Positions 4,374 to 24,805 of a stretch of 30,933 nt of DNA are shown here, piece by piece (positions within the stretch are counted from its first letter, which is position 1; each line of letters begins with the position of its first letter). Source of the stretch: a virus; the IMG/VR virus record IMGVR_UViG_3300047409_000165, positions 1-30,933 of that record. One strand, 5' to 3'. The translations under genes were made by a program, and so were the position numbers. The notes under the pieces were generated by a model. That model was not told the DNA's origin. It ran no database searches and was given only the letters and a program-made list of their open reading frames with translations.

Positions 4374-5447
4374 CTAAGCACCAAAGAGCGCAGAACCCGC
4401 AAACTTAGCGCCGATCCCGGCTATGGTGCCAATCGCTCCCCACGGTGAGTTTGCTTGGTTGGCTTGGTAGTTAGCCATCTGCGACGAGTACATGCTGTTG
4501 GTCGCACCGACCCCGGCCCCGATCGCCGCAGACATATTGCCTAAAGCGTTGACGCCGGTGCCCATCAGTCCGACGCCCTGTGTGCCATAGGAACTCGAGA
4601 GGTTGGTATAAGGGTTGAGCGACGCGTAAGCGGTGGGCGACCCCATCGCATTGGTGCCAGCGTTGAGGAAATTACCTGCGGCGGATATGCCTCCACCGCC
4701 GATTGCCGAACCGCTCAACCCAGACGCGGTCTGGTTGAGACCGAGACCAGCCTGGGCTATCGCCTGGGCCGGGAGTTTCTGGCCGACCTCGAGGGCAGCA
4801 GCTTCGTACTGTTTGCCCTGGGCCACGGTCTGCTGCCGCGCCATGGTTCCCGAGGCTGCAGTGGCCGCAGACCTGGAGATATCCGCCGCGCCCATACTTC
4901 GCTGGAACGCACCTTGCGACGGGTCAATACCATATGATGCTAACTGCCGTGTCGCCGCGTCCTTCTGCGCCTGGAACGCATTGCCGACATCGGCCTGCGC
5001 CGCGCCCGCCGCTTGATCCTGCCGCACCGGCGTCGCGTAGCCAAACGCCTCATCGGCGAACTGGGTCTCCTTGGGCATAAAGACGGTTTTGTACTGGTCG
5101 TAAGTATCCTGCGCCTGCTGCGCCGAGATCTGCGCGGCTTTGGTTTGCGCGTCTTGGTTAGCCTGCGCGGCGTTGGTAAAATCGAGCTGCGACTGCATGT
5201 ATTTCTGCAGATAAGGCAAGGCATCCTGGTATTGCTGCTTGCCAAACGCAGCTTGATCCGAGGCCATTTGCGCGTATTTGTCGCCAAGATCGGCCGCACG
5301 GCCCGAATATATATTTTGCTGATCTAGTTGCCTGTTGCCCAGATCCTCGGAGACCTTGGCAGCGGCGGCATCCGACTGCGACGCCTGCTGCGACGCCAGG
5401 ATAAACGGCGTATAGTCGGGTGCTGGCGGGGGCGAGGCCTTGCCCAT
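4374..5447 (-). CDS. Internal virion (ejection-type) protein, Ala/Gln-rich
   Basis: The 357-aa product starts MGKASPPPAPDYTPF, and its first 180 residues are Ala/Gln-rich and helical, likely coiled coil. The C-terminal half is rich in Gly, Ala and Ser (SGLSGSAIGGGG, then GAIGTIAGIGAKFAGSALFG), ending in a weakly hydrophobic, glycine-zipper-like segment. This composition is typical of podovirus internal proteins that leave the capsid with the DNA and may insert into the host envelope. There is no catalytic motif. It lies downstream of the GNAT-like gene with an ATGA overlap and is followed by a gap holding a dispersed palindrome. Confidence 0.7.
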   Translation of the reverse strand: MGKASPPPAPDYTPFILASQQASQSDAAAAKVSEDLGNRQLDQQNIYSGRAADLGDKYAQMASDQAAFGKQQYQDALPYLQKYMQSQLDFTNAAQANQDAQTKAAQISAQQAQDTYDQYKTVFMPKETQFADEAFGYATPVRQDQAAGAAQADVGNAFQAQKDAATRQLASYGIDPSQGAFQRSMGAADISRSAATAASGTMARQQTVAQGKQYEAAALEVGQKLPAQAIAQAGLGLNQTASGLSGSAIGGGGISAAGNFLNAGTNAMGSPTAYASLNPYTNLSSSYGTQGVGLMGTGVNALGNMSAAIGAGVGATNSMYSSQMANYQANQANSPWGAIGTIAGIGAKFAGSALFGA

Positions 5448-5908
5448 CAGGCAGCCCGTTCATTGGCGTGCTGCAAGAACTTCGGAACGTAACCATCGCG
5501 CAGCCACGGGCAGCTATCCCGGGTCATGCCCAGGATGATCAGGTGCACGCCCTTCTCATAGGCGTCGTGCACAACTGCTTCGAGGTTCCACCCGGCACGC
5601 GTATCCATGGCGATCACCGATGACTGGTCGGAACGCAGTGGGGCCAGAACCTTATAGCACCCGATCTGGACAAACGCGTAGTGGAATACCAGCCAGAGAA
5701 GATCCCGCGAGCACCAGTGCTTGTCCTCGCCGGCCATGTGCACGGTTATGGAATTACCGAGATACTGGCACAACGCAAACCCGCCGATGATCTTCCCGTC
5801 CCGGTGGGTGGTGAACGAATGATCGACGCCGGGCATGAAATAACCCTTGACCCGTAGCATCACCCACTCGCCGGCACCGGGATCGTCGATGCGGATCTCG
5901 CGGCTCAT
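5447..5908 (-). CDS. GNAT-fold acetyltransferase-like phage protein (T7 gp13-like position)
   Basis: This 153-aa protein follows the GNAT pattern. A strand at about 35-48 (THRDGKIIGGFALCQYL) is followed by a helix and strand at 68-92 (LLWLVFHYAFVQIGCYKVLAPL), then an RSDQSSVIAMDTRAGW segment (92-107) in the place where GNAT enzymes have the helix following the cofactor strand, and a final strand VHLIILGMTRDSCPWL. Related proteins sit beside internal virion protein genes in T7-like phages and are often annotated as acetyltransferases; the substrate is unknown. The classical acetyl-CoA loop (Q/RxxGxG/A) is not obvious, so catalysis is uncertain. The start overlaps the stop of the small upstream gene and its own stop overlaps the next start, both as ATGA. 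Confidence 0.7.
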   Translation of the reverse strand: MSREIRIDDPGAGEWVMLRVKGYFMPGVDHSFTTHRDGKIIGGFALCQYLGNSITVHMAGEDKHWCSRDLLWLVFHYAFVQIGCYKVLAPLRSDQSSVIAMDTRAGWNLEAVVHDAYEKGVHLIILGMTRDSCPWLRDGYVPKFLQHANERAA

Positions 5909-14080: not shown

Positions 14081-14219
14081 TGAGTCGCGACGAGCTGACC
14101 AAGCATCCATAAGCGGGCAATATCTCGGCTACTTCGCCACAAAGGAAGAAGCCGCCGCAGCGTATAACGCTGCGGCGATTACGAAGTTCGGAAAGTTCCG
14201 CCGAGTATACCATAAGTAA
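14079..14219 (+). pseudogene. Truncated AP2-domain relic of a homing endonuclease
   Basis: The plus strand between capsid and adaptor genes reads without a stop for 46 codons to TAA at 14217. It encodes QYLGYFATKEEAAAAYNAAA then ITKFGKF, which closely matches the C-terminal AP2-type segments of the two intact HNH genes here (LGYFDSEQDAHLAYVEAAKA and LGTYSSIEDAAEAYRKAA). There is no start codon in frame, and a TAG within the palindrome closes the frame on the 5' side. No HNH part remains because the adjacent sequence is the adaptor gene on the other strand. It is probably the remnant of a decayed insertion, and its GC-rich centre now also forms a hairpin. Confidence 0.6.
14148..14177 (-). terminator. 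Hairpin/terminator downstream of the capsid gene
   Basis: CGCCGCAGCG (14153-14162) pairs perfectly with CGCTGCGGCG (14168-14177) around a 5-nt loop. In the leftward direction the stem is followed by a T-rich but interrupted run (GCTTCTTCCTTTG). This fits attenuation or 3'-end stabilisation after the highly expressed capsid gene. Confidence 0.55.
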
Positions 14220-15173
14220 TTAACTCGGGGCGCAGTACAACTCTACCAAACAGGTCCCGTCAATTACTTTGTAGCCGTAGACCTGTAGTCCGCGTAATAG
14301 TGTACCGAAGGTCGACTCTGACCTGAGGGTCTCCATCTGTGAGATCTGCGAGGCAAAGGTGAGGCCGGCGTCAAAACCCGCGAAGACCCTTGTGGCGGTG
14401 TGCGTCCCGTCGACCACGGTGGGGAGCAGGTTTGACGAGTAGAGGGTGAACCGGTCGATCATCCCTAAGCGCCCGTTCCTCTGCAGCGACACCCCGTCGC
14501 CCGAGATCGACGCGTTGGACAGCGAGGACTTCTTGATCATGCTGCCGAGCCAGGGTGGGATGATCAGCCATCTGCCGGTCTCCGGGATGTTCTGCTCGTC
14601 CAGGCACTGGCCCATGTCGACGATGTGATTGATGATGTCGGTGGTCGTAGGGATCACCGGGGTGCCGGTCACGCCAAGGTTGATGTTGGACGAGATCTTC
14701 CCCGCCGTCGCGCCCTTGTTCTTGACATCCACGCCGGCGTCGATGCCCGAGAGAACCGCTGTATCGATGACGATCTTCATCTGCTCGGCGGCATCGTCAG
14801 CCCACATGGACATCAAATTCATGTCCGACTGGCGCTCCATGATGTCGTCGAGCACCAGATTAAAGTACTTCGCGTAGTCGATGGTCAGCTCCACCGACGT
14901 GCTGGACGGGCGGTCGACCGTGAGCTGCTGGTCGATCGTGTAGTCGCGGATCTGGATGGTGGGCTTTGTTCTAATTTTGACCTTGTCGCCCATGTTCTTG
15001 ATCTCGCCCTCGTAATCGGTGTTCGAGATCGCGGCAAGAACAGTGGCGGCGTAGAACTTCTCGATGAGTTTCCCGGACCAGATTTCGGGGATGAACACAC
15101 CGCCGGCGGGTGCGCCGGAATAGGCAGGGTTAGCGGCGACGCCGGTATAAGGCGTACCTTGTGCAATAGCCAT
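14220..15173 (-). CDS. Major capsid protein (HK97-fold)
   Basis: This 317-aa protein has features of the phage coat family: an N-terminal arm, then IPEIWSGKLIEKFYAATVLAAISNTDYEG, a conserved segment NMGDKVKIRTKPTIQIRDYT, a spine helix region MSMWADDAAEQMKIVIDTAVL, and TGRWLIIPPWLGSMIKK. The C-terminus is LRGLQVYGYKVIDGTCLVELY. It follows the scaffold gene as in P22-like and T7-like orders. The ATG has AAGGA eight bases upstream. A hairpin follows the gene, so it may be made at a higher level than downstream genes. No cleavage signal is evident. Confidence 0.9.
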   Translation of the reverse strand: MAIAQGTPYTGVAANPAYSGAPAGGVFIPEIWSGKLIEKFYAATVLAAISNTDYEGEIKNMGDKVKIRTKPTIQIRDYTIDQQLTVDRPSSTSVELTIDYAKYFNLVLDDIMERQSDMNLMSMWADDAAEQMKIVIDTAVLSGIDAGVDVKNKGATAGKISSNINLGVTGTPVIPTTTDIINHIVDMGQCLDEQNIPETGRWLIIPPWLGSMIKKSSLSNASISGDGVSLQRNGRLGMIDRFTLYSSNLLPTVVDGTHTATRVFAGFDAGLTFASQISQMETLRSESTFGTLLRGLQVYGYKVIDGTCLVELYCAPS

Positions 15174-15188
15174 CTGAGCTGTCCTTTC

Positions 15189-16259
15189 CTATGCCAGGAC
15201 ACGCCCCTCCGAGGCTGCTGCGAGGATGTCGCGCTCGAGGGCTTCACCCTCTTGCTCGCGACCTTTGTACCGTCCCTCGGTGCGGTCCCGGTAGAAGCGT
15301 GAGATTTCGGGTCGTGACCAGAAACGCGGTGTAGGAGCGCCGTCCGATCCGCCCGAACCGCCTGCGGCCCGGCCAGGAACCACCAGATCCTCTAAGCGAG
15401 TCCTCGCTGCAACCGCACGCCCGTTTCCGTTGGAGTTTGGGCGCGGCGTGCGACCAGTCTGAGGTGCCGCATAGGTCTGTGGCACGGTATGCTCTGCCAT
15501 ATACTTCTTAAAGAACCTGCCCGTCCGTATGGCGTCGCCGTTCGAGTAGGCGTGCTGGAGCATTTGATTGCGAGGCACCCCAGCGTATTCGTCCTGCCCC
15601 TGCAGCCAGTTGATAAACTCAGGATTAGTGTTGATCTCGCGCCAGCCGTCAAGCTCGGGATCTTTGTCGAGCGCCTCGAACACCTGATCGCGGATCTGCA
15701 TCGCCGAGATGTTCTGCTGCCCGCCCTCGAGGCGTTGGATGGTGTTCTCGAGCCGGGCGATCATCGGCTCGTATCTGGCAGCGGCGGCGCGGGCGGCGGC
15801 CTGGAGAAAATCCTCGCCGTAGAGGTCGATGTCCTCCTGGTTAAAGGTCGCCGCAGGCCCACTAGACGGGGCCTGCGGCACCTGAGACTGCGGCGCGGGG
15901 GCCTGCATGGTCGCCAAGAGACGCTCCATGCTGGCGACCTGGGCGCGCAGCCCCGAAGTCTCGGCGTCGTACTTACCCTGCAGGGTGCGGTAACGCTGTT
16001 CCCAGTCTGTCGTGTGGCGAGCCGTGCGGGTATCGACCGGAGGGGCCGCAGCACGCTCCTCCACACGGGTCTCGGAGAGGGGAGGACCTCCTCCACTACC
16101 CGTAGTGGGATCATCACCCTGCTGCGACCCCTCCTCCAGCGGCAAAGTCTCGTCCCCACGCTCCGCCGCCAGTTCACGTTGTAACTCTTCCGCGCGCGCC
16201 GCCTGCCGGCGGATCTGCTCGGGGATGAAATTAGTGTTGGTGCTGGGATCTTCAGCCAT
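15189..16259 (-). CDS. Capsid scaffolding protein
   Basis: A 356-aa charged, hydrophilic protein directly upstream of the capsid gene. The N-terminus (EQIRRQAARAEELQRELAAE) and residues about 90-125 and 150-190 are likely coiled coil. A flexible Pro/Gln stretch lies between. The C-terminal part is basic with helices, as expected for the coat-binding end. Residues about 50-60 include DDPTTGSGGG, encoded by a copy of the dispersed palindrome in a linker. Scaffolds line the procapsid and leave during packaging. The start overlaps the stop of the preceding small gene by eight bases. Confidence 0.8.
   Translation of the reverse strand: MAEDPSTNTNFIPEQIRRQAARAEELQRELAAERGDETLPLEEGSQQGDDPTTGSGGGPPLSETRVEERAAAPPVDTRTARHTTDWEQRYRTLQGKYDAETSGLRAQVASMERLLATMQAPAPQSQVPQAPSSGPAATFNQEDIDLYGEDFLQAAARAAAARYEPMIARLENTIQRLEGGQQNISAMQIRDQVFEALDKDPELDGWREINTNPEFINWLQGQDEYAGVPRNQMLQHAYSNGDAIRTGRFFKKYMAEHTVPQTYAAPQTGRTPRPNSNGNGRAVAARTRLEDLVVPGRAAGGSGGSDGAPTPRFWSRPEISRFYRDRTEGRYKGREQEGEALERDILAAASEGRVLA
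16094..16107. repeat. Dispersed palindrome, copy 6 (centre CCCG)
   Basis: CACTACCCGTAGTG inside the scaffold gene. Both arms are intact and only the centre differs. It is read as TTGS in a Gly-rich linker. Confidence 0.85.
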
Positions 16260-16512
16260 GGGTTTTCACGCTGGGCTTGGGGTTCCTGTTGCCGGGAACC
16301 GGGTTCTCGACTAGCTCGATATGGGCGACGATGTCGCGGATGCCCCGAGCGTAACCCGTGGCGTCCGCGCGCTCGTCGTGCGGGACCTCGATGGCGCGGT
16401 GCATAAAGACGTTCATCTGCTCGCGCAGCGCGTCGACGAAGCGCCGCCAGTCGGCGGTGTTTTTCATATTGGAGATGGCGTCGTATGCCGCCGGGCCGAG
16501 GTTTAGAGCCAT
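16252..16512 (-). CDS. Small helical protein between portal region and scaffold
   Basis: With ATG at 16512 (MALNLGPAAYDAI) the product is 86 aa. A longer frame would need a TTG start and would overlap the upstream gene. The upstream TAG ends one base before this ATG, so the two are near-coupled. The protein is helical, with DWRRFVDALREQMNVFMHRAIE and DATGYARGIRDIVAHIELVE. Small proteins of this type are conserved beside portal or scaffold genes of short-tailed phages. A structural or assembly role is inferred from position only. Confidence 0.65.
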   Translation of the reverse strand: MALNLGPAAYDAISNMKNTADWRRFVDALREQMNVFMHRAIEVPHDERADATGYARGIRDIVAHIELVENPVPGNRNPKPSVKTHG

Positions 16513-16513
16513 T

Positions 16514-16897
16514 CTAAAATAAACCCCCCGGCCCCACGCCACCACCGCCAAGACCGCCTACGCCGCCGCCACCCGGGGCCTTCTTGCCGTAGCGTTGGAC
16601 CGAGTGAAGATCCTGGTCGCCGCCGGCCACTGCCGCGATACCCGATCCGCGCCGGCCGACAACACTCCCCAGATCCTGGGTCCTGATCGACTTGCGCGGA
16701 CCAAACCGCTGCGGGTCGGCGGGCGGGCCGAACACGCCCATCAACCCGGGTTTGGGCGAACTGGGGGGCGCGGCACCGCCGACATATGACGGGGCCTGCC
16801 GGGGGGCGGCGGCGTGCTCCAACGCCGTCGGCATCCCGGCGATCCTACCCCCACCACCCAGGGCGGTGGGGGCTTTTGGCGCGGAGAACGCGACCAT
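16514..16897 (-). CDS. Small Gly/Pro-rich protein
   Basis: A 127-aa, low-complexity protein rich in Gly, Ala and Pro with a Gly-rich C-terminus (APGGGGVGGLGGGGVGPGG). The middle has a short conserved-looking core, FGPRKSIRTQDLGSVVGRRG. No domain is recognised. It is linked to the upstream 64-aa gene by an ATGA overlap and followed after one base by the next ATG. Likely a minor virion or assembly protein; function unknown. Confidence 0.6.
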   Translation of the reverse strand: MVAFSAPKAPTALGGGGRIAGMPTALEHAAAPRQAPSYVGGAAPPSSPKPGLMGVFGPPADPQRFGPRKSIRTQDLGSVVGRRGSGIAAVAGGDQDLHSVQRYGKKAPGGGGVGGLGGGGVGPGGLF

Positions 16898-17091
16898 CAG
16901 GCACCTACCCCGCCGGTGTATTTAGAGGTCGCGGCGATTTTTTGCGGGTTGAACGGCGCGGCCTGGGAGTCGCCGGGTGTGGATTTACCCTTGGGGTACG
17001 AGCGTGAACTCCCCCCGCGCGAGTCGCCCGACGACCCGCCGCTGACCGCCGGCGTCGACTTGTTCGAGATCTCCTTGGTTTCGCCGATCAT
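16897..17091 (-). CDS. Small Ser/Gly-rich protein
   Basis: A 64-aa hydrophilic protein with Ser/Gly-rich centre (SGGSSGDSRGGSSRS) and a C-terminus ending in YTGGVGA. Its ATG has a good AAAGGAG Shine-Dalgarno. It lies right after the polyvalent protein gene. No domain is recognised and the role is unknown. Confidence 0.6.
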   Translation of the reverse strand: MIGETKEISNKSTPAVSGGSSGDSRGGSSRSYPKGKSTPGDSQAAPFNPQKIAATSKYTGGVGA

Positions 17092-17103
17092 CCTGGTTCT
17101 CCT

Positions 17104-19926
17104 TTAATAAGCCTGTGCGTAGTTGGGGTAATCCTGGGGCTGCATGATATTAAGCGCGATATTCTGCGGCTCGGCCGGGTTGTTGGGTGCCGGCGCGGCG
17201 TACTCGTTGCCCCATGACCACTTTAGGTTAGCGTCGCCGGAGTCGGGGCCGGACGGAGCTAAGGCAGCAATCGGCTGGGCCGGCACTACCGGTAGTGGCA
17301 TCTGCTGTTGGGCGGGAAGCTGGTAACTCGAGCTGTCCGGCATCGCGAAAGGGTCGTGCTCGACCGGGGCATACCGGCTCGGGTCGTGCGGGTCGCCTTC
17401 TACCGGGGTCAAGGTCATCGGCGACCCGGCCTCAGCCGGGGTGCTGAACGGATCGTGATCGACTTCCTGGTACTGCCTGCCGGGGGTGAGATCGATGCCG
17501 TACTTACCGCGTTGGCGAATTATCTGCTGCTCGGGCGGCGCAAAGTTGGGCATGTCCGGCGGGTACTGATCGTAATTCCCGGTCTCGTACTCGGTCTGGA
17601 CCTTACGCGACTGAGTCTCGCCGACAAGGTTTTGATATTTGGTATAGGCCCGGTCCTTATCCAGCTCAACCGGATACATGGCCGATACGGCTTCTATCAG
17701 TGCATTATAGTCCTTAGACGGTAACTTACGCTTATACCAATCAATCGCTTCATTATTCGCCGGAGTATTGTCATTATGAACCCACTTCTCTATAAGTAAA
17801 TTTGTCAAAGAGTCGGCAGTATCCGGGTCGATTATTTTAGCCGCCGCGTCACGCGCCTGTTTTATGCCTTCACGGGCGGCGTCGAGCCGGTCGTAATAAC
17901 CCACCGGCAAGAACATGCTATCGGAACCGCCGGGGGCCATCCCCTCGAATTTCTGCACCCCGTGCTGCATCTCGTGCAACAGAGTCGAGACTATTTCCGG
18001 CTCGCTGCGGTTAGCTGACAGCATGACCTTGTTGTCGGTCCTGTCGTAAGCGGCGATCAACCCGCCACCATCCTTATCAGGCGGCAACCGCTCGACCGTC
18101 GCGGTGCGCAGTTCGGGGTAGGCGTTGTACAGCTCGGGGTGATCGAGCACATCCGGCAGCGTGCGGGTTTCCGCCGACGGTTTAAGGGTCAGAGTTTCCG
18201 GCTTGGCCGGGCGCGTATAGCCCGGGCGTTGCTGACCCGACGCGCTCGTATAAGGCTTGATGATGACTTCCGCCGGGGTCGCCGGGGATGTGTCGAACTG
18301 ACCAGTGTTGAGTTTTGCCTGTGCGTCGGGCAGCACCCACTGCCACGTACCGTCCGCGCCGCGAAACCAGCCGGTTTGATAGAAAACATCCCGGCCCGAG
18401 ACACCCTTGTCGGCGAGATCTTTAGCCGCTTCGACCGGCATGCCCGGCCCGCTGGCGGGAGGGGCGGCGGATTTTACCCAGGCAGGCGTCTCGGCGGAAG
18501 TGCCAAGCCGCGCCGCAGCCTGCTCGCCGCCGAACATTACCTGTTGGGTGTTAGGATTTTGTTGTGGTGCCGCTGCCCCAGGGACCACACCGAACCGCCC
18601 GCCGGGCGCGGCCATGGGAGCCGCCTTGGCCTCGCCACTACCGGTAGTGGCGGCAACCGCCCCGCCGCCGCCGGCGATCAGCCCGGCCATGCCGTATTTA
18701 CGGACGATCTCCATATATCTCGGGTCGAAACTGACATAGTTATGAGTCGCGCCCGGGACATCGAGACCGCCGGTGCGGCTGCCCTGGTCGAGATACCTGA
18801 CCCCGGGGATGCCGGCGTCGTTCAGCGCCTGCGACGCGGCAGCGTCGCCGCCAAGTTCGTGCGACAACGCAGTGTAGACGGTCTCTCCACTGCTGCCCGG
18901 GCGCTTTAGCATGTACGCAGCCGACGCGTTCGGGTCGAGCTTGTCGATAACGCTTTGTAGTTTGTCTTTTAGCTGCGGCTGATCGCTAAGAGATCGATCC
19001 CAGTGCAGGTAGTCATCGGGTTTTGCGTGAAGGTTCACCTCGTACATCTTGCCTTGAGGTTTAACCAACTCGTCGAAATTCTTAATGGCGTAATCCATCG
19101 GCTCGCGCAGGGACTGCGACACGGCATCGCCGGGATACCTGTCGGCCCTGATGCGCAGATCCTTTAACGCCGCCCGCTTCGCCGCCGCTCCGGTGAGGCC
19201 GTCGTCGATCGCCTTGTTGAGCGCGTTCTTAGCCAGGATATACGAATACTGCGGATGCCCCGGCGGCACGGCGGGGGTCGTCATGTCGCGGTAAGTCTTG
19301 CCGACGCCTTCCGCTTCCGCCGTGTAGAGGCCGCGCGAAAAGACCTGATTACCCTCGCCGGAACCAATTTTATTGATGTCGAACCGCCCGTGCGGCGCAC
19401 CCGGCTCGGGCGCGAAGTCATGCGGCGACCCGTGATAGGTCCTGATGGGGTCGGGGATGCGAATGTCGGGGCCTCTACTCGACAACGCACCGCCGGAACT
19501 TAGTATCGGAGGCGGTGCGCCCGGTGGTGGGGCCGCCGGTGCGGGTATCTGCGCACCGGGCACGCGCGCCACCGCCGCGTCCTGCGACGAGTGCCACGAG
19601 AGGTCGCCTTTAGGGTCGCGCAGCAGCCACTGCCCGCCGGGTGCGCTAGGCGGGATGACCGCATAACCGCGCCCGAGATTAGTCGGCGCGGTAATGGCGG
19701 GACGTACCGGACCCGAACCCAGCGCGCCGCGCGGCGCTCCGACGCCGCCGCCCATTGCATAGGGCACCACCTCGAGCGCGTCCCGCGTCGCCTGCTCGTA
19801 ATCCCCCGGCTGACGCTCGCCGGTGAGGTATTTCATCGGGATCTTGGCGGTATTCAGCGCGCCCTGCATGATCTGCCACGCAGTGTCGCCGATCACGCCG
19901 CCGAATTTCTGGTGCGCCTGGGCCAT
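17104..19926 (-). CDS. Polyvalent virion protein: ADP-ribosyltransferase-like plus HExxH metallopeptidase-like domains
   Basis: This 940-aa protein combines several modules. Residues about 160-410 match ADP-ribosyltransferase domains of phage polyvalent proteins: TYHGSPHDF (163-171) with the likely NAD-binding His, SRGLYTAE (197-204) with the likely Tyr, then LHWDRSLSDQ, GIPGVRYLDQGSR (372-384) and NYVSFD. A Gly/Ala linker with palindrome-encoded ATTGSG follows near 425. Residues about 510-800 contain YQTGWFRGADGTWQW and the zinc-peptidase motif HEMQH (651-655), as in LPD-type large polyvalent protein domains. The Pro-rich C-terminus carries a second palindrome read as PLPVV. Such proteins are injected to modify or protect against host factors; targets are unknown. 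The stop of the HNH gene overlaps its ATG as ATGA. Confidence 0.8.
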   Translation of the reverse strand: MAQAHQKFGGVIGDTAWQIMQGALNTAKIPMKYLTGERQPGDYEQATRDALEVVPYAMGGGVGAPRGALGSGPVRPAITAPTNLGRGYAVIPPSAPGGQWLLRDPKGDLSWHSSQDAAVARVPGAQIPAPAAPPPGAPPPILSSGGALSSRGPDIRIPDPIRTYHGSPHDFAPEPGAPHGRFDINKIGSGEGNQVFSRGLYTAEAEGVGKTYRDMTTPAVPPGHPQYSYILAKNALNKAIDDGLTGAAAKRAALKDLRIRADRYPGDAVSQSLREPMDYAIKNFDELVKPQGKMYEVNLHAKPDDYLHWDRSLSDQPQLKDKLQSVIDKLDPNASAAYMLKRPGSSGETVYTALSHELGGDAAASQALNDAGIPGVRYLDQGSRTGGLDVPGATHNYVSFDPRYMEIVRKYGMAGLIAGGGGAVAATTGSGEAKAAPMAAPGGRFGVVPGAAAPQQNPNTQQVMFGGEQAAARLGTSAETPAWVKSAAPPASGPGMPVEAAKDLADKGVSGRDVFYQTGWFRGADGTWQWVLPDAQAKLNTGQFDTSPATPAEVIIKPYTSASGQQRPGYTRPAKPETLTLKPSAETRTLPDVLDHPELYNAYPELRTATVERLPPDKDGGGLIAAYDRTDNKVMLSANRSEPEIVSTLLHEMQHGVQKFEGMAPGGSDSMFLPVGYYDRLDAAREGIKQARDAAAKIIDPDTADSLTNLLIEKWVHNDNTPANNEAIDWYKRKLPSKDYNALIEAVSAMYPVELDKDRAYTKYQNLVGETQSRKVQTEYETGNYDQYPPDMPNFAPPEQQIIRQRGKYGIDLTPGRQYQEVDHDPFSTPAEAGSPMTLTPVEGDPHDPSRYAPVEHDPFAMPDSSSYQLPAQQQMPLPVVPAQPIAALAPSGPDSGDANLKWSWGNEYAAPAPNNPAEPQNIALNIMQPQDYPNYAQAY
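17284..17297. repeat. Dispersed palindrome, copy 7 (perfect)
   Basis: Exact CACTACCGGTAGTG near the 3' end of the polyvalent protein gene, read as LPVV within a Gln/Pro-rich tail. Confidence 0.9.
18636..18649. repeat. Dispersed palindrome, copy 8 (perfect)
   Basis: Exact CACTACCGGTAGTG inside the polyvalent protein gene, read as TTGSG in the linker between the ADP-ribosyltransferase-like and metallopeptidase-like parts. Confidence 0.9.
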
Positions 19927-20432
19927 CAGGCAGCTCCTGCGTTGGCAAAATCGCCAAAGACCGCCTTCGCGGCTTCGACATACGCAAGATGCGCGTCCTG
20001 CTCGCTATCGAAATAGCCCAGGTGCTGGGTATAGCCGTCGGCCCTGATGACCGATCGCCATCGATTTTTTACCTTATACGCGCCCTTTAGACCCCGGTGC
20101 ATCGCGCCGGCATTGGCTTTGTTCTGACCATGGGTCGCAAGGCGTAAATTATCCCACCGGTTATCGGCCTTATTGCCGTTAATGTGATCAACCTCTGCTT
20201 CCGGCCATTCGTCGGTCATCATCAGCCAGATAATGCGATGTGCGATGTATTTGCGCGGGTACACACTTACTATTACATACCCTACCTTGACCGTGTGCCC
20301 GACCCTAGCGCCCTCAACAACGTGAGCGCGAGCACGCTGAAACAAATCTCCAGTAACCGGATCATAACGAAACAAACTATGCGCCCGTTCGGCGGTTAGA
20401 TCTGTTTTATTAGGCGCGCGTTTCATCGTCAT
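19926..20432 (-). CDS. HNH homing endonuclease with AP2-like C-terminal domain
   Basis: A 168-aa free-standing HNH endonuclease. The N-terminus has the SLFRYDPVTGDLFQ motif typical of this group. The HNH core runs from AHRIIWLMMTDEWP through EVDHINGNKADNRWDNLRLAT (about 75-110), with DH and N-x(8)-N residues present. A DNA-binding AP2-like segment (KNRWRSVIRADGYTQHLGYF, then DSEQDAHLAYVEAAKAVFG) closes the protein. It lies between portal and polyvalent genes with ATGA overlaps on both sides, so the insertion leaves the operon intact. Its DNA is clearly richer in A/T than its neighbours, consistent with recent transfer. A second in-frame ATG at 20426 is possible. Confidence 0.92.
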   Translation of the reverse strand: MTMKRAPNKTDLTAERAHSLFRYDPVTGDLFQRARAHVVEGARVGHTVKVGYVIVSVYPRKYIAHRIIWLMMTDEWPEAEVDHINGNKADNRWDNLRLATHGQNKANAGAMHRGLKGAYKVKNRWRSVIRADGYTQHLGYFDSEQDAHLAYVEAAKAVFGDFANAGAA

Positions 20433-22723
20433 CGCACTTGAAGATATTTGCCCTGTCTACCAGGACGTGGGTCAGGTATGTAATGAAATCCGTCGGGGGC
20501 CAGCCTAGCGCCCGGCAATGGTGGCGGCCCTGGTGGTGGTCCCGGCGGAGGTCCTGCGGGACCGCCGGGCGGCGGTCCGCCGGGGCCTGACGGCGGTCCG
20601 GGGGGACCTCCTTGACCGCCGACACCTAGCGCCGCGCCGACCGGCCCCTGGCCCACGGCTTTACTAGCGGCTACCGCCATCTGGGCCATGTTCGCGGTCT
20701 GCTGTTGTTGATTTTGCGCCTGTTCTTTCTGTTGAAGCGTATCGTCGTCGGGCACGATGTCGTCGGGCATCCCCAGCCCACTGGCGAGCGCGCGCAATAC
20801 TCGACCGCGACCAGTCATCCCGACGATGCCCATATCCATCGGGTTAGCGGTTATTTGTAAAAACTGGAGTTGTTTCTGGTTCTCGGTTTCTTTCTGGAGG
20901 GCTACGACCACACCGTTTACTTTGATTTGTTCATCCCCCGACAGGAGGCCAGACTGATCGGTCAACATGATCATGTCATACAAAGATTGCAGGACACCGT
21001 GCATCACGTCGACATCGACGTTGGCCGCGACGGTCTGCAGGACTTTCTGAGCGTTGCCCATCAACATAGATAGCCCCGAGGCCGTGCGTCCTGCGCCGCC
21101 GGAGACCGCCTCGCCGGTGGTGTACCTCGGTATCGCCGAGGTATCGTCGCCCATCGCGTTCATGCTCTGGTAGATCGTGATGAGTTCCTGAGCGTTGGAC
21201 TGCGGCTGGAAAAAGGTAATCGGCTGCTGGGTGGAACCCAGCGGATCGGAGTTAACTTTCCAGCGTTTCCAGGGATATAACTGATCCTCGTTGTTGGTGG
21301 GATCTAGTAGTTCAGTGTTGATCACCACCTGCGGCCCGCTGGCGATCGACATGTTATTGACGAGGGCGCGCAAGGTGGCGTTCGCAACTTCCTGGATGTC
21401 TTCCAGAATATCCGGCAGCCCGTGCCCGGCGATGTTGCCGGGGACTTTCTCGAAGCTGGTGACGTAGTAAGGATGCCGGCGGCGCGGGGAAGGGGTGATC
21501 TGGGTCTTAATAGTGTGACGGCCAACGACCCAAGACTGCACCAAGTAATCCCTGTCGGGATCGGGGATCTGGCTTTCATCGACACCCTCGTCGAGCAGGG
21601 TGGTTCCTTGTATGTACCCGTGGTACTCGATCGCGTCGATCAGGTTTGACCTGTTTTGCTGGGGGGCTTCCCGGCCGGCGTTGAGCGCGGCCTCGGTGTC
21701 GGGCGCGTCCATCCAGTCGCGCAGCCCGTGTGCATAATCCTCCAGCGCCGCCCGAACCGCCGCGTCGTTGTATCCCGGAAGGCCTAATACGTCGTTGAGG
21801 TCCTTGCGGGATAATTTTTTGCGCTCGATCAGCTCGGAGTTCTCGACGCTAGTAGCGCCAGGACCCCAGTAAAAGTTAAAGGGATCGACCCGTTCCCAAA
21901 ACAGCTGCGGTACAATATCCATCTGCGGCTGACGGTTGACCCAGGTCAGCTTGGAAACCATACGCACCACCGGCCCCTTCAGCACGGCGAAGGGAAACAG
22001 CGCCAGATCGACTAGGAACTCGGCCAACGCGTCGTAGAAGTTACCGGCCTCGAGAATGTCCTCGACCTTGTTGGACGCCGCCTCGGCCTGCAGGTCGGCT
22101 GTACGTTTGGCGGCCTGCTGGGCTTGGCGGACCATCGAAACAAATCTTGCATGCACGTCGATCGGCTGCGGCGGCTGGCCCACCTGGGCATGGGCCTCCC
22201 CTGCCTCTGAAGAAATAAGCTGAGCAATCGAAGCCATGATCTCGGGCGGCACCGGCGGGTCAGGCTGCGGGTCGATCGACCACGGGCGCTCGGCACCCAA
22301 GTAAACATCCCGAAGTAAACTGGTGGCCCCCCGGCATTTGACTGCGACTATTCTTGAATAAACTTCACTCCCGCCGAATTTTCTGATCTCGGCCAGCTTA
22401 GACGGGTCGTACTGGCCCTCGAACATACGTTGTGCTCGTAGCAACCTTTCGTTCAGAGGGTTCCTATTCTGATTGCGGTGGTTGCGCATCGCATCCCACC
22501 GTGTGCGAATGTAATGGCCCAGATCGTCGGGGGTTTGCTGGACAGGACCGCGCTGGCGCGCGTTCTCCTCGGCTGTTCTTTGGTCCAGCTCGGCGGGGCT
22601 GACAACACGTAAAAACCCAGGACCGCTCTCACGAGAGAGCGGGATAATGTTCGGCCCACTACCGGTAGTGGGCGTCGAATACCTTGGCCCGGGAATAGGC
22701 AGGGCGTTCGCCAAACTGTACAC
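20429..22723 (-). CDS. Portal protein
   Basis: This 764-aa protein has the size and segments of podovirus portals: an N-terminal helical region with RTRWDAMRNHRNQNRNPLNERLLRAQRMFEGQY, a wing region with KVEDILEAGNFYDALAEFLVDLALFPFAVLKGP, PQLFWERVDPFNFYWGPGATSVENS, and a stem/crown region with LEDIQEVANATLRALVNNMSIASGPQVVINTELLD. The C-terminus is Gln-rich then Pro/Gly-rich. It forms the dodecameric DNA channel at one capsid vertex and docks the terminase, whose genes lie divergently next to it. The start is taken as GTG at 22723; a TTG at 22714 with better GGGGG spacing is an alternative. A palindrome copy encodes PTTGSG at residues 18-23. Confidence 0.88.
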   Translation of the reverse strand: MYSLANALPIPGPRYSTPTTGSGPNIIPLSRESGPGFLRVVSPAELDQRTAEENARQRGPVQQTPDDLGHYIRTRWDAMRNHRNQNRNPLNERLLRAQRMFEGQYDPSKLAEIRKFGGSEVYSRIVAVKCRGATSLLRDVYLGAERPWSIDPQPDPPVPPEIMASIAQLISSEAGEAHAQVGQPPQPIDVHARFVSMVRQAQQAAKRTADLQAEAASNKVEDILEAGNFYDALAEFLVDLALFPFAVLKGPVVRMVSKLTWVNRQPQMDIVPQLFWERVDPFNFYWGPGATSVENSELIERKKLSRKDLNDVLGLPGYNDAAVRAALEDYAHGLRDWMDAPDTEAALNAGREAPQQNRSNLIDAIEYHGYIQGTTLLDEGVDESQIPDPDRDYLVQSWVVGRHTIKTQITPSPRRRHPYYVTSFEKVPGNIAGHGLPDILEDIQEVANATLRALVNNMSIASGPQVVINTELLDPTNNEDQLYPWKRWKVNSDPLGSTQQPITFFQPQSNAQELITIYQSMNAMGDDTSAIPRYTTGEAVSGGAGRTASGLSMLMGNAQKVLQTVAANVDVDVMHGVLQSLYDMIMLTDQSGLLSGDEQIKVNGVVVALQKETENQKQLQFLQITANPMDMGIVGMTGRGRVLRALASGLGMPDDIVPDDDTLQQKEQAQNQQQQTANMAQMAVAASKAVGQGPVGAALGVGGQGGPPGPPSGPGGPPPGGPAGPPPGPPPGPPPLPGARLAPDGFHYIPDPRPGRQGKYLQVR
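22657..22670. repeat. Dispersed palindrome, copy 9 (perfect)
   Basis: Exact CACTACCGGTAGTG in the 5' end of the portal gene, about 53 bp inside the coding start, read as TTGS in a flexible N-terminal arm. Confidence 0.92.
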
Positions 22724-22742
22724 CCCCGCAAAATCCAGGCTA

Positions 22743-22770
22743 TTTATACCTTTAAGTTTGACGTTAGCAA
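22743..22770 (-). promoter_or_regulatory. Candidate promoter for the leftward structural operon
   Basis: On the minus strand TTGCTA (-35, 22765-22770) is separated by 16 bp from TATAAA (-10, 22743-22748), about 20 bp before the portal start. It lies in the AT-rich divergent gap between portal and terminase. It fits a sigma-70-like promoter; no phage-RNA-polymerase type promoter was recognised. Confidence 0.5.
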
Positions 22771-22787
22771 TAGTAGCGAGGTCTGAA

Positions 22788-23396
22788 GTGGCTTTGCCGA
22801 TGGTCCTCGACCAAAATCCTTATCACGACGACGCGCTTATCCAGCGGTTACAGTACGATCTCGCCACGGGGATGCACCAGCCCGACGAGATCGCCCGGCG
22901 GTACGGGCTAAAAGACAAGAACGAGTTAAGAAATTACCTGCGGCAGCACCCGATGCTGGTCGAGGAAGCCCGCAAAATCAAGGCGTTGTTTAATTCGGCA
23001 GAGGGAACTGAGACTAGGGTGCGGGCGAAGTTCCAGCGGGCGACCGAGGAGTTGATCGTCCCGATCGCCCACGTCGTGCGAGATCCTCTCACCCCTGTAG
23101 GCGCGCGGATCGACGGTTTCAGGCAGCTTCAACGAGGAGCCGGCCTCGACGGCGCGCCGGCGGCCATACGGGGAAATGAAAGTAGGCAGACTGGAACCGC
23201 GTTTAACCTGACGATAAATTTTGCCGGTGGGCGTCAGGAGGTTATCTCCGGCACGACGGTGCTCGACGCCAGCGAAATCCCGCCGCCGCCCGGCTCGCTG
23301 GCCGAGCATCTATCGACCGATGAACGGGCGCTTGTCGGCAGGCTTATGTCTCCCACTACTGGTAGTGAGGAGGACTACCCCGAGGAAGAAGTCTGA
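22788..23396 (+). CDS. terS: Terminase small subunit
   Basis: With GTG at 22788 (GAGG six bases upstream) the product is 202 aa; ATG at 22800 is an alternative. Residues about 25-50 form a DNA-binding helix-turn-helix-like unit (TGMHQPDEIARRYGL, NELRNYLRQHP). A helical oligomerisation region follows (KFQRATEELIVPIAHVVRD, ARIDGFRQLQRGAGL). The C-terminus has a beta segment FNLTINFAGGRQEVI and a terminal acidic tail, SPTTGSEEDYPEEE, encoded partly by a palindrome copy. It recognises the packaging site and loads the large subunit. Its stop overlaps the terL start as TGATG. Confidence 0.8.
   Translation: MALPMVLDQNPYHDDALIQRLQYDLATGMHQPDEIARRYGLKDKNELRNYLRQHPMLVEEARKIKALFNSAEGTETRVRAKFQRATEELIVPIAHVVRDPLTPVGARIDGFRQLQRGAGLDGAPAAIRGNESRQTGTAFNLTINFAGGRQEVISGTTVLDASEIPPPPGSLAEHLSTDERALVGRLMSPTTGSEEDYPEEEV
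23354..23367. repeat. Dispersed palindrome, copy 10 (centre CTGG)
   Basis: CACTACTGGTAGTG at the 3' end of the small terminase gene, read as TTGS. It also lies 28 bp before the large terminase ATG and is followed directly by GAGGAGG, as at other palindrome-preceded starts. Confidence 0.88.
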
Positions 23397-24805
23397 TGTT
23401 TTACCAGCCGCCGCCAACCATTCAGGATTTTATGCTCGACAACGAGCACCGTATCAGGGTGCTAGTCGGTCCATTAGGTAGTGGCAAGACCATGGGTTGC
23501 GTGATGGAGCTGCTGCGCAGGAGCTGCGAGCAAACTCCCCATAACGGCGTGAGGTACACTCGATGGGCGCTGATCAGGAATACTTTACAACAACTACGTC
23601 AAACTGTTCTTGCGGACGCTGTGCAGTATCTCGGCGAATGCGTGCACTACTACGTGACCGACAGCACATTACAAGTAAGGCTCAACTTGCCCGATGGTAC
23701 GAGCGTGCACTCCGACTGGATGCTTTTGCCGCTGGACTCAAAAGAGGATGTCCGCAGGCTGCTGTCACTGCAGCTGACCGGGGCGTGGGTCAATGAGCTG
23801 CGGGAAGTTCCGTTTGATATTATGCGTCATCTACTCGGGCGGTGCGGTCGCTACCCTTCTCGCGCTCTGGGCGGTGCTACGTGGCACGGGGTTGTGGCGG
23901 ATACCAATCCTTGGGATGTCGACAGCCCTTATCACGATCGAATGGTACTCAACCCTCACAAATCATGGGCCTTATACCATCAGCCGAGCGGGATCGGCCC
24001 CGGCGCGGAAAACGTCCACAATCTCCCCGACGGATACTACGAAGATTTAATGGGCGACAAGGATGTCGACTGGGCGTCGGTACACGTCGAGTCACAGTGG
24101 GGTAGCTCGAACGCGGGTCACGCTGTCTTCAGGAAAACTTTCGACGCCGCGACCCATGTCAAGGACATGTCGGTGGTGGTGAACCCAAATCGACCGGTGA
24201 TGGTCGGGTTGGATTTTGGCCGGACACCATGCGCGGTTATCGGCCAGCACGACAATTTCGGGCGCGCCATCATAATGAAGGAGATCGTCACCGAAGGGAT
24301 GGGCCTCACCCAGATGATACAGGAGCACATGAAACCTGTGTTGTCAGGGCCGCCGTTCGCAGGACGGCGGGTGTTTATCGTCGGCGACCCGGCGGGTCGT
24401 CAACGCTCGCAGACACGCGAAGAAACGCCGTTCGATATACTACACGATGAAGGGTTTCTCGCGTATCCGGCAAGTACTAACGTAATAGACATGCGCTTAC
24501 TAGCAGTTGAAAAGTTTCTACGACAAACAGTTATGGGTCAGCCCGCCTTACAGATTAGTCGCCAGGGTTGCCCTACACTGATTAGAGCACTCGGTAATCA
24601 GTATCGTTATAGAAGAAAACGCGATGGAGTATTAGACGATCTTCCAGACAAGAGTCATCCTTGGTCGGATATTGCCGATGCTTTACAGTATTTCTGCCTT
24701 GGTACTTCAAGCAACTACACTGGTAGAGTAATGGCGCGCGAACGTCGGTATTACAGTCCCGAAACTTCTTACGCTAATACTCCGAGTGCTGCGGGATGGA
24801 CCTAG
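23396..24805 (+). CDS. terL: Terminase large subunit
   Basis: A 469-aa packaging motor. The ATPase domain has Walker A GPLGSGKT (25-32) and a Walker-B-like strand LTGAWVNELRE (about 128-137) with likely catalytic Glu134. The nuclease domain shows VGLDFGRTPCAV (Asp273), VGDPAGRQRS (Asp331) and SHPWSDIADALQYF (Asp425/428), the acidic set of the RNase H-like fold. It cuts concatemers and pumps DNA through the portal. It is translationally coupled to terS by TGATG. The last roughly 350 bp are markedly richer in A/T than the rest. Its stop TAG shares bases with the stop of the convergent HNH gene. Confidence 0.93.
   Translation: MFYQPPPTIQDFMLDNEHRIRVLVGPLGSGKTMGCVMELLRRSCEQTPHNGVRYTRWALIRNTLQQLRQTVLADAVQYLGECVHYYVTDSTLQVRLNLPDGTSVHSDWMLLPLDSKEDVRRLLSLQLTGAWVNELREVPFDIMRHLLGRCGRYPSRALGGATWHGVVADTNPWDVDSPYHDRMVLNPHKSWALYHQPSGIGPGAENVHNLPDGYYEDLMGDKDVDWASVHVESQWGSSNAGHAVFRKTFDAATHVKDMSVVVNPNRPVMVGLDFGRTPCAVIGQHDNFGRAIIMKEIVTEGMGLTQMIQEHMKPVLSGPPFAGRRVFIVGDPAGRQRSQTREETPFDILHDEGFLAYPASTNVIDMRLLAVEKFLRQTVMGQPALQISRQGCPTLIRALGNQYRYRRKRDGVLDDLPDKSHPWSDIADALQYFCLGTSSNYTGRVMARERRYYSPETSYANTPSAAGWT

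What the first reader, a model, noticed from the sequence alone, without database searches (positions are those of the whole stretch)
17104..19926. Virion-region protein joining an ADP-ribosyltransferase-like and a zinc-peptidase-like domain
The 940-aa product shows YHGSPHDF, RGLYTAE and GIPGVRYLDQGSR motifs, then TGWFRGADGTW and HEMQH. Placement between portal and scaffold suggests packaging in the head and injection. Polyvalent proteins with such domains are known in phages and conjugative elements, yet this pairing in a short-tailed phage could be an early takeover or anti-defence effector.
Basis: partly seen in the sequence, partly recalled or inferred. Interest (0 to 1): 0.65.

Follow-up and report, generated by a model that had tools for sequence, protein, structure and literature searches.

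The report
Phage cargo protein with swappable enzymes
A short-tailed phage encodes, next to its DNA-entry portal, a modular protein that fuses an ADP-ribosyltransferase-like and a zinc-protease-like domain, a known kind of probably injected takeover protein; its constant tail carries a short 'HDPF' peptide that, unexpectedly, marks the ends of many portal-side proteins in other short-tailed phages and may be a head-loading tag.

Summary
In detail: a 940-aa ORF on the minus strand (17104-19926) carries all the motifs named. Residues 160-416 are an ADP-ribosyltransferase (ART-PolyVal type): 50 of 56 relatives hit PF18760, and the model matches a podophage ejectosome protein, diphtheria-toxin homologues, PARPs and AcrIF11. 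Residues ~500-780 are LPD23 plus a zincin (HEMQH, third ligand probably E770). The pairing is not new: phage F116 gp60 has the same domains, and Iyer 2017 describes ART plus zincin in polyvalent proteins, including a podovirus one. The modularity is informative: a sister phage, 88-92% identical in the flanks, has only LPD23-zincin in this slot; others have ART alone or nothing. The exchanged segment stops at a constant C-terminal tail that starts at an HDPF motif. That motif (consensus PVDHDPFA) occurs in at least 120 viral stretches against 0 for a codon-permuted control, typically 4-5 residues after the start or 0-4 before the stop, mostly downstream of P22/SU10-type portals (33 of 38 contigs; 0 of 38 HK97- or lambda-type), on ARTs, zincins, cell-wall hydrolases and DarB-like proteins. 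I propose a head-loading tag; the window's copies are divergent and internal. Packaging, activity and targets are inferred.

The parts
17104..19926 (-). 940-aa polyvalent protein gene (ART + LPD23 + zincin + constant tail)
18679..19449 (-). ART-PolyVal-like domain, residues 160-416, with a long helical insert; H165 (19432-19434), Y201 (19324-19326), N396 (18739-18741) invariant in 56 relatives
18307..18429 (-). LPD23 domain, residues 500-540
   Evidence: PF18838 E 1.3e-9; all 38 relatives match LPD23
17587..18144 (-). zincin-like metallopeptidase domain, about residues 595-780
   Evidence: DUF6782 E 4e-5, below Pfam cut-off; model and VIA matches to PprI, selecase, SPRTN, Wss1
17962..17976 (-). 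HEMQH zinc-binding motif, residues 651-655
17617..17619 (-). E770 of the invariant Y....GE...R motif, probable third zinc ligand
   Evidence: 38 of 38 conserved; ligand role inferred
17446..17466 (-). HDPF motif copy 1, EVDHDPF, residues 821-827, at the swap breakpoint
17344..17367 (-). HDPF motif copy 2, PVEHDPFA, residues 854-861
17104..17463 (-). constant C-terminal tail, inside the 92%-identical flank shared with sister phage L002
17464..20423 (-). exchangeable segment (HNH + N-terminus + ART + LPD23-zincin); L002 has a 1.1-kb LPD23-zincin segment instead
   Evidence: no nucleotide match except 93 bp at 72%
19926..20432 (-). HNH_3 homing-type endonuclease gene at the edge of the segment, absent there in L002
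   Evidence: PF13392 E 1.7e-16, phrog_99
20429..22723 (-). portal protein (SU10/T7-like)
   Evidence: PF23899 E 5e-11, phrog_332 E 1e-63
15189..16259 (-). scaffold-like protein (by position and composition; phrog_13678, unknown function)
14220..15173 (-). major capsid protein
   Evidence: PF25209, phrog_267 E 2e-53

Best explanation
This is a modular polyvalent cargo protein of a podovirus. It is made late with the head genes, loaded into the procapsid near the portal, probably through its constant C-terminal tail, and ejected with the DNA. In the cell the zincin probably processes the polyprotein (freeing the ART from the linker and tail) or cuts a host protein. The ART, an NAD+-dependent H-Y-N variant of ART-PolyVal, probably modifies a host protein early in infection. 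SHOWN by computation: the domains, intact motifs, module swapping at a constant tail, and a conserved slot next to the portal. INFERRED: packaging, ejection, catalysis, targets, and the tail's loading role through its HDPF motifs.
For: Domains: LPD23 in all 38 relatives, DUF6782 in 13; PF18760 in 50 of 56 ART relatives. Structures: ART model pLDDT 88.8; VIA best match is the cyanophage A4 pre-ejectosome (9k3a_B, Z 10.6, 149 aligned, 4.0 A), then diphtheria-toxin homologues, tankyrases and AcrIF11 (Z 6-7.5). Zincin model pLDDT 84.6, with PprI, selecase, SPRTN and Wss1 at Z 5-6. Active-site positions are invariant in divergent relatives. Slot: phiGT1 has ART alone between portal and scaffold, sister phage L002 LPD23-zincin alone, L010 ART with another C-terminus, RHph_TM27A no such gene. 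Loading idea: the swap ends at a constant tail beginning at HDPF copy 1; the motif is enriched in ART and zincin ORFs (7 of 172 versus 1 of 9443, p 4e-12), is terminal, and is portal-linked elsewhere. Precedents from papers: T4 Alt is packaged and injected, P1 DdrB is processed; 44% of phage ARTs lie in contexts suggesting packaging.
Against: No virion proteomics for this phage; the phiGT1 virion mass-spectrometry table could not be opened. N396 replaces the glutamate that sits at the matching place in F116 (REFVVF), so the ART chemistry may differ or be lost. The window's HDPF copies diverge from PVDHDPFA and lie 80-120 residues from the end, so the tag may be decayed here. Zincin fold matches are weak (Z about 6) and come below chance helical matches. 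Foldseek alone found no significant solved relative for either model.
Confidence: 0.6

Rival explanations
1. The ART is an anti-defence effector: delivered with the DNA, it ADP-ribosylates a host immune component, as AcrIF11 does to its target (recalled, not tested), rather than taking over transcription.
For: AcrIF11 (6kyf) is among the fold matches, Z 6.3. The ART comes and goes between near-identical phages, as expected of an accessory gene tied to host defences.
Against: AcrIF11 ties with many other ARTs. No target evidence; presence and absence fits takeover roles as well.
Confidence: 0.25
2. The ART fold is no longer catalytic and serves as an NAD-binding or structural part of the ejection complex.
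For: Asn at the strand-5 position where F116 has Glu, invariant in 56 relatives. The nearest solved fold lies in a pre-ejectosome.
Against: The H, Y and N pocket residues are invariant at 29% mean column identity, which suggests retained function. Iyer 2017 describes an H-Y-D set in polyvalent ARTs, so the last position varies among predicted enzymes.
Confidence: 0.2
3. The gene is a moron expressed in infected or lysogenic cells and is not a virion component.
For: It sits at a variable locus beside an HNH gene, and sister phages differ there.
Against: Same strand and cluster as the head genes; homologues keep the portal-side slot; an ART-like domain occurs in a pre-ejectosome.
Confidence: 0.15
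4. The HDPF motif is a cleavage or linker sequence, or an ejection-complex docking site, and not a head-loading tag.
For: In the window it marks a module boundary.
Against: Most copies elsewhere are near the N- or C-terminus (74 of 83 complete ORFs, 21 expected), where there is little to link or release.
Confidence: 0.3

Closest known systems
Polyvalent proteins (Iyer et al. 2017, PMC5512222)
   Same: ART, zincin and LPD domains in one protein of a phage head module; predicted packaged and injected
   Different: Shorter than the giant examples; H-Y-N site with a long helical insert; single-copy domains swapped at a constant tail
Pseudomonas phage F116 gp60 (AAT47251, Hollowayvirus)
   Same: LPD23 + DUF6782-like zincin + ART-PolyVal in one protein of a phage known (from memory) to be short-tailed
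   Different: Zincin before ART; 1649 aa with a 680-aa PLxRFG tail domain; Glu, not Asn, at ART strand 5
Sulfitobacter phage phiGT1 gp5 (QLB38217)
   Same: Homologous ART in the same portal-scaffold-capsid interval of a podovirus
   Different: Standalone 387-aa ART, no zincin, no HDPF motif
Cyanophage A4 pre-ejectosome chain 9k3a_B
   Same: Contains a domain matching the ART model at Z 10.6
   Different: Larger protein; sequence relation not detected
T4 Alt; T4 capsid-targeting sequence; encapsulin cargo-loading peptides
   Same: Head-packaged injected ART (T4 Alt); short terminal peptides that load cargo (analogy, from memory)
   Different: No sequence relation tested; HDPF has no demonstrated loading function

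Membership tests
ART-PolyVal (PF18760) | Profile match over the family cut-off | tested here: inconclusive
   The window itself gives no match, but 50 of 56 aligned relatives match; phiGT1 gp5 and L015 fall just under the cut-off and cover only the N-terminal part
ART-PolyVal (PF18760) | ART fold | tested here: met
   Model pLDDT 88.8; VIA top 45 rows nearly all ARTs, best Z 10.6
ART-PolyVal (PF18760) | H (strand 1), Y (strand 2), acidic residue in strand 5 (H-Y-D in Iyer 2017) | tested here: inconclusive
   H165 and Y201 in 56 of 56; strand 5 is HNYVSFD: N396 56 of 56, D401 44 of 56; which residue acts is unknown
Zincin-like metallopeptidase of polyvalent proteins | HExxH plus a downstream Glu ligand | tested here: met
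   HEMQH and GE(770) in 38 of 38 relatives; zinc geometry not measured
Zincin-like metallopeptidase of polyvalent proteins | Zincin fold | tested here: inconclusive
   selecase 6.1, PprI 6.0, SPRTN 5.8, LF 5.6, below helical chance matches at 7-9
LPD23 (PF18838) | Profile match over the cut-off | tested here: met
   38.1 bits against a cut-off of 27
Polyvalent protein | Two or more unrelated effector domains in one phage protein | tested here: met
Polyvalent protein | Delivered into the host with the DNA | not testable with these tools
   Needs virion proteomics and ejection assays
HDPF-tagged podovirus proteins (proposed here) | PVDHDPFA within a few residues of a terminus | tested here: not met
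   The window has two divergent internal copies, EVDHDPF and PVEHDPFA; it is related to the set, not a canonical member
HDPF-tagged podovirus proteins (proposed here) | Gene downstream of a P22/SU10/T7-type portal on the same strand | tested here: met
   Window portal 20429-22723 (-) upstream of this gene, same strand; pattern in other contigs

The most novel reading that the evidence does not exclude
The PVDHDPFA-type peptide is a general cargo-loading signal of short-tailed phages: a terminal tag, recognised at the portal vertex or by the scaffold, that sorts unrelated injected enzymes (ARTs, zincins, cell-wall hydrolases, acetyltransferases, DarB-like anti-restriction proteins) into the head. 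The window protein then shows a constant address tail with an exchangeable enzyme payload.
Probability: 0.35. Interest if true: 0.82.

Novelty: new variant of a known kind. Interest (0 to 1): 0.56.

Why it matters
How podoviruses choose which proteins enter the head is, as far as I know, poorly understood. A short terminal peptide shared by unrelated portal-side proteins would make this directly testable, would give a sequence handle to find injected effectors among hypothetical proteins, and could allow loading of reporter cargo into heads of laboratory phages. The protein itself adds a natural payload swap between closely related phages.

Tried and rejected
Foldseek against PDB gave no significant match for either model; the VIA second look recovered ARTs and zincins. 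Sequence and profile searches of PDB found nothing. A single-sequence scan with the ART found no relatives; an alignment query did. 'New pairing' was rejected by F116, L015, L117, L124, L145, L154 and L168. A DNA-level signal was rejected for HDPF: all wobble positions vary. Chance was rejected: permuted control 0 stretches, reversed pattern 0 in 38 contigs. No paper with the string DHDPF in this sense was found. HK97-type and lambda-type portals were sought in 38 tag-bearing contigs, none found. No paper describing the cyanophage A4 ejectosome was found.

Full report
WHAT IS THERE. The ORF is real, but on the minus strand: 17104-19926, 940 aa. All motifs are present at residues 164, 198, 372, 518 and 651. 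It lies in a head module transcribed as portal (20429-22723), HNH gene (19926-20432), this gene, small ORFs, a scaffold-like gene (15189-16259) and capsid (14220-15173). The record is a 30.9-kb virus contig. A gp77-like fiber-tail adaptor, an internal virion protein and a transglycosylase-like injection protein fit a podovirus. The nearest cultured portal is that of Rhizobium phage RHph_TM27A, 52% identical.

ART DOMAIN. Residues 160-416 miss PF18760 on their own, but 50 of 56 aligned relatives match it. The AlphaFold2 model (pLDDT 88.8) has the six short strands of an ART, with large helical inserts. VIA matches: cyanophage A4 pre-ejectosome 9k3a_B at Z 10.6, then diphtheria-toxin homologues, tankyrases, MbcT, ParT and AcrIF11 at Z 6-7.5. 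H165 and Y201 are invariant in 56 sequences. At strand 5 the invariant residue is N396, where F116 has Glu (sequence); D401 is kept in 44 of 56. I call it an H-Y-N variant; whether it is catalytic is open.

PEPTIDASE DOMAIN. LPD23 (E 1.3e-9) precedes a DUF6782-like zincin (below cut-off). In 38 relatives H651, E652, H655, G769, E770 and R774 never change, so E770 is the likely third zinc ligand. The model (pLDDT 84.6) matches PprI, selecase, SPRTN, Wss1 and lethal factor at Z 5-6, below chance matches of its helical insert.

THE PAIRING IS KNOWN. F116 gp60 has LPD23, the zincin and a full-length ART-PolyVal (E 1e-39), and further ORFs from independent contigs have both. Iyer et al. 2017 describe the zincin as the most common domain of polyvalent proteins and ART as the most common protein-modifying one, including ART in a zincin-containing podovirus virion RNA polymerase.

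MODULE SWAP. Against sister phage L002 the flanks are 88-92% identical (window 20424-23582 and 14100-17463), but 17464-20423 has no match except 93 bp. L002 has there a 498-aa gene with LPD23-zincin only, without ART or HNH. Elsewhere the slot holds ART alone (phiGT1), ART with a different C-terminus (L010) or only tiny ORFs (RHph_TM27A). The breakpoint at residue 821 lies at the first residues of HDPF copy 1, so a constant tail is joined to exchangeable payloads.

THE HDPF MOTIF. Among ORFs collected by domain, not by motif, a relaxed motif occurs in 7 of 172 ART/zincin ORFs and in 1 of 9443 others (Fisher p 4e-12); the one exception is the neighbour of a carrier. All wobble positions vary, so selection is on the peptide. 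N-terminal copies most often begin 4-5 residues after an ATG, C-terminal copies 0-4 residues before the stop; 74 of 83 complete ORFs have it near a terminus, 21 expected. Carriers fall into 25 single-linkage clusters and include ART-PolyVal, cell-wall hydrolase, LPD23, pyrophosphatase, acetyltransferase, phosphatase, DarB-like anti-restriction and minor-head families. Neighbours are portal, coat, terminase, head-closure and ejection genes. Of 38 longer contigs, 33 match a P22/SU10/T7-type portal (union; a few matches weak) and none an HK97- or lambda-type portal. All 38 sites with a placed portal are on the portal strand, 20 within 3 kb downstream. In cellular genomes a looser mixture appears, with many Bradyrhizobium and Methylobacterium records. 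Among annotated phages the podovirus Pam5 has two tags at the start of Pam5_13, the gene after the tail lysozyme. The literature library has no mention of the string in this sense.

READING. The protein most likely is an injected, self-processing or host-cleaving effector with an ART payload and a constant loading tail. Domain identity is well supported, packaging moderately, enzyme activity and target not tested. The tag is an association: no experiment shows loading, and the window's own copies are divergent and internal, so the tag argument applies to this protein by relation.

Noticed in passing
L169-L287 (viral contigs motif scan), L351 Pam5_13: PVDHDPFA-type peptide at the N- or C-terminus of many unrelated podovirus portal-side proteins, often in tandem; absent in a permuted control.
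   Followed up: yes
window 19926-20432: HNH_3 endonuclease gene at the edge of the swapped segment, absent there in L002, which has an HNH-like ORF after its capsid gene instead; possibly involved in the exchange.
   Followed up: partly
window ORF residues 408-430 and ART relatives: A small-residue, hydrophobic stretch (KYGMAGLIAGGGG-like) follows the ART domain in many relatives; might touch membrane or the ejection channel.
   Followed up: no
window ORF residues 88-125 and L010 ORF 3851-6328: A similar ~40-aa segment (YxVIPPSAPGGQWLLRDPKGDLSWHS / YTIIPATGEGSSWLVMNKGRAIKFDS) recurs in both proteins; possible small mobile domain.
   Followed up: no
window 5447-5908: Small ORF matching phrog_4470, acyl-CoA N-acyltransferase (moron/host takeover class), within the virion gene cluster.
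   Followed up: no
L016 7470-8786 and 8752-11031: ART and LPD23-zincin encoded as two adjacent overlapping ORFs, the split version of the window's fusion.
   Followed up: partly
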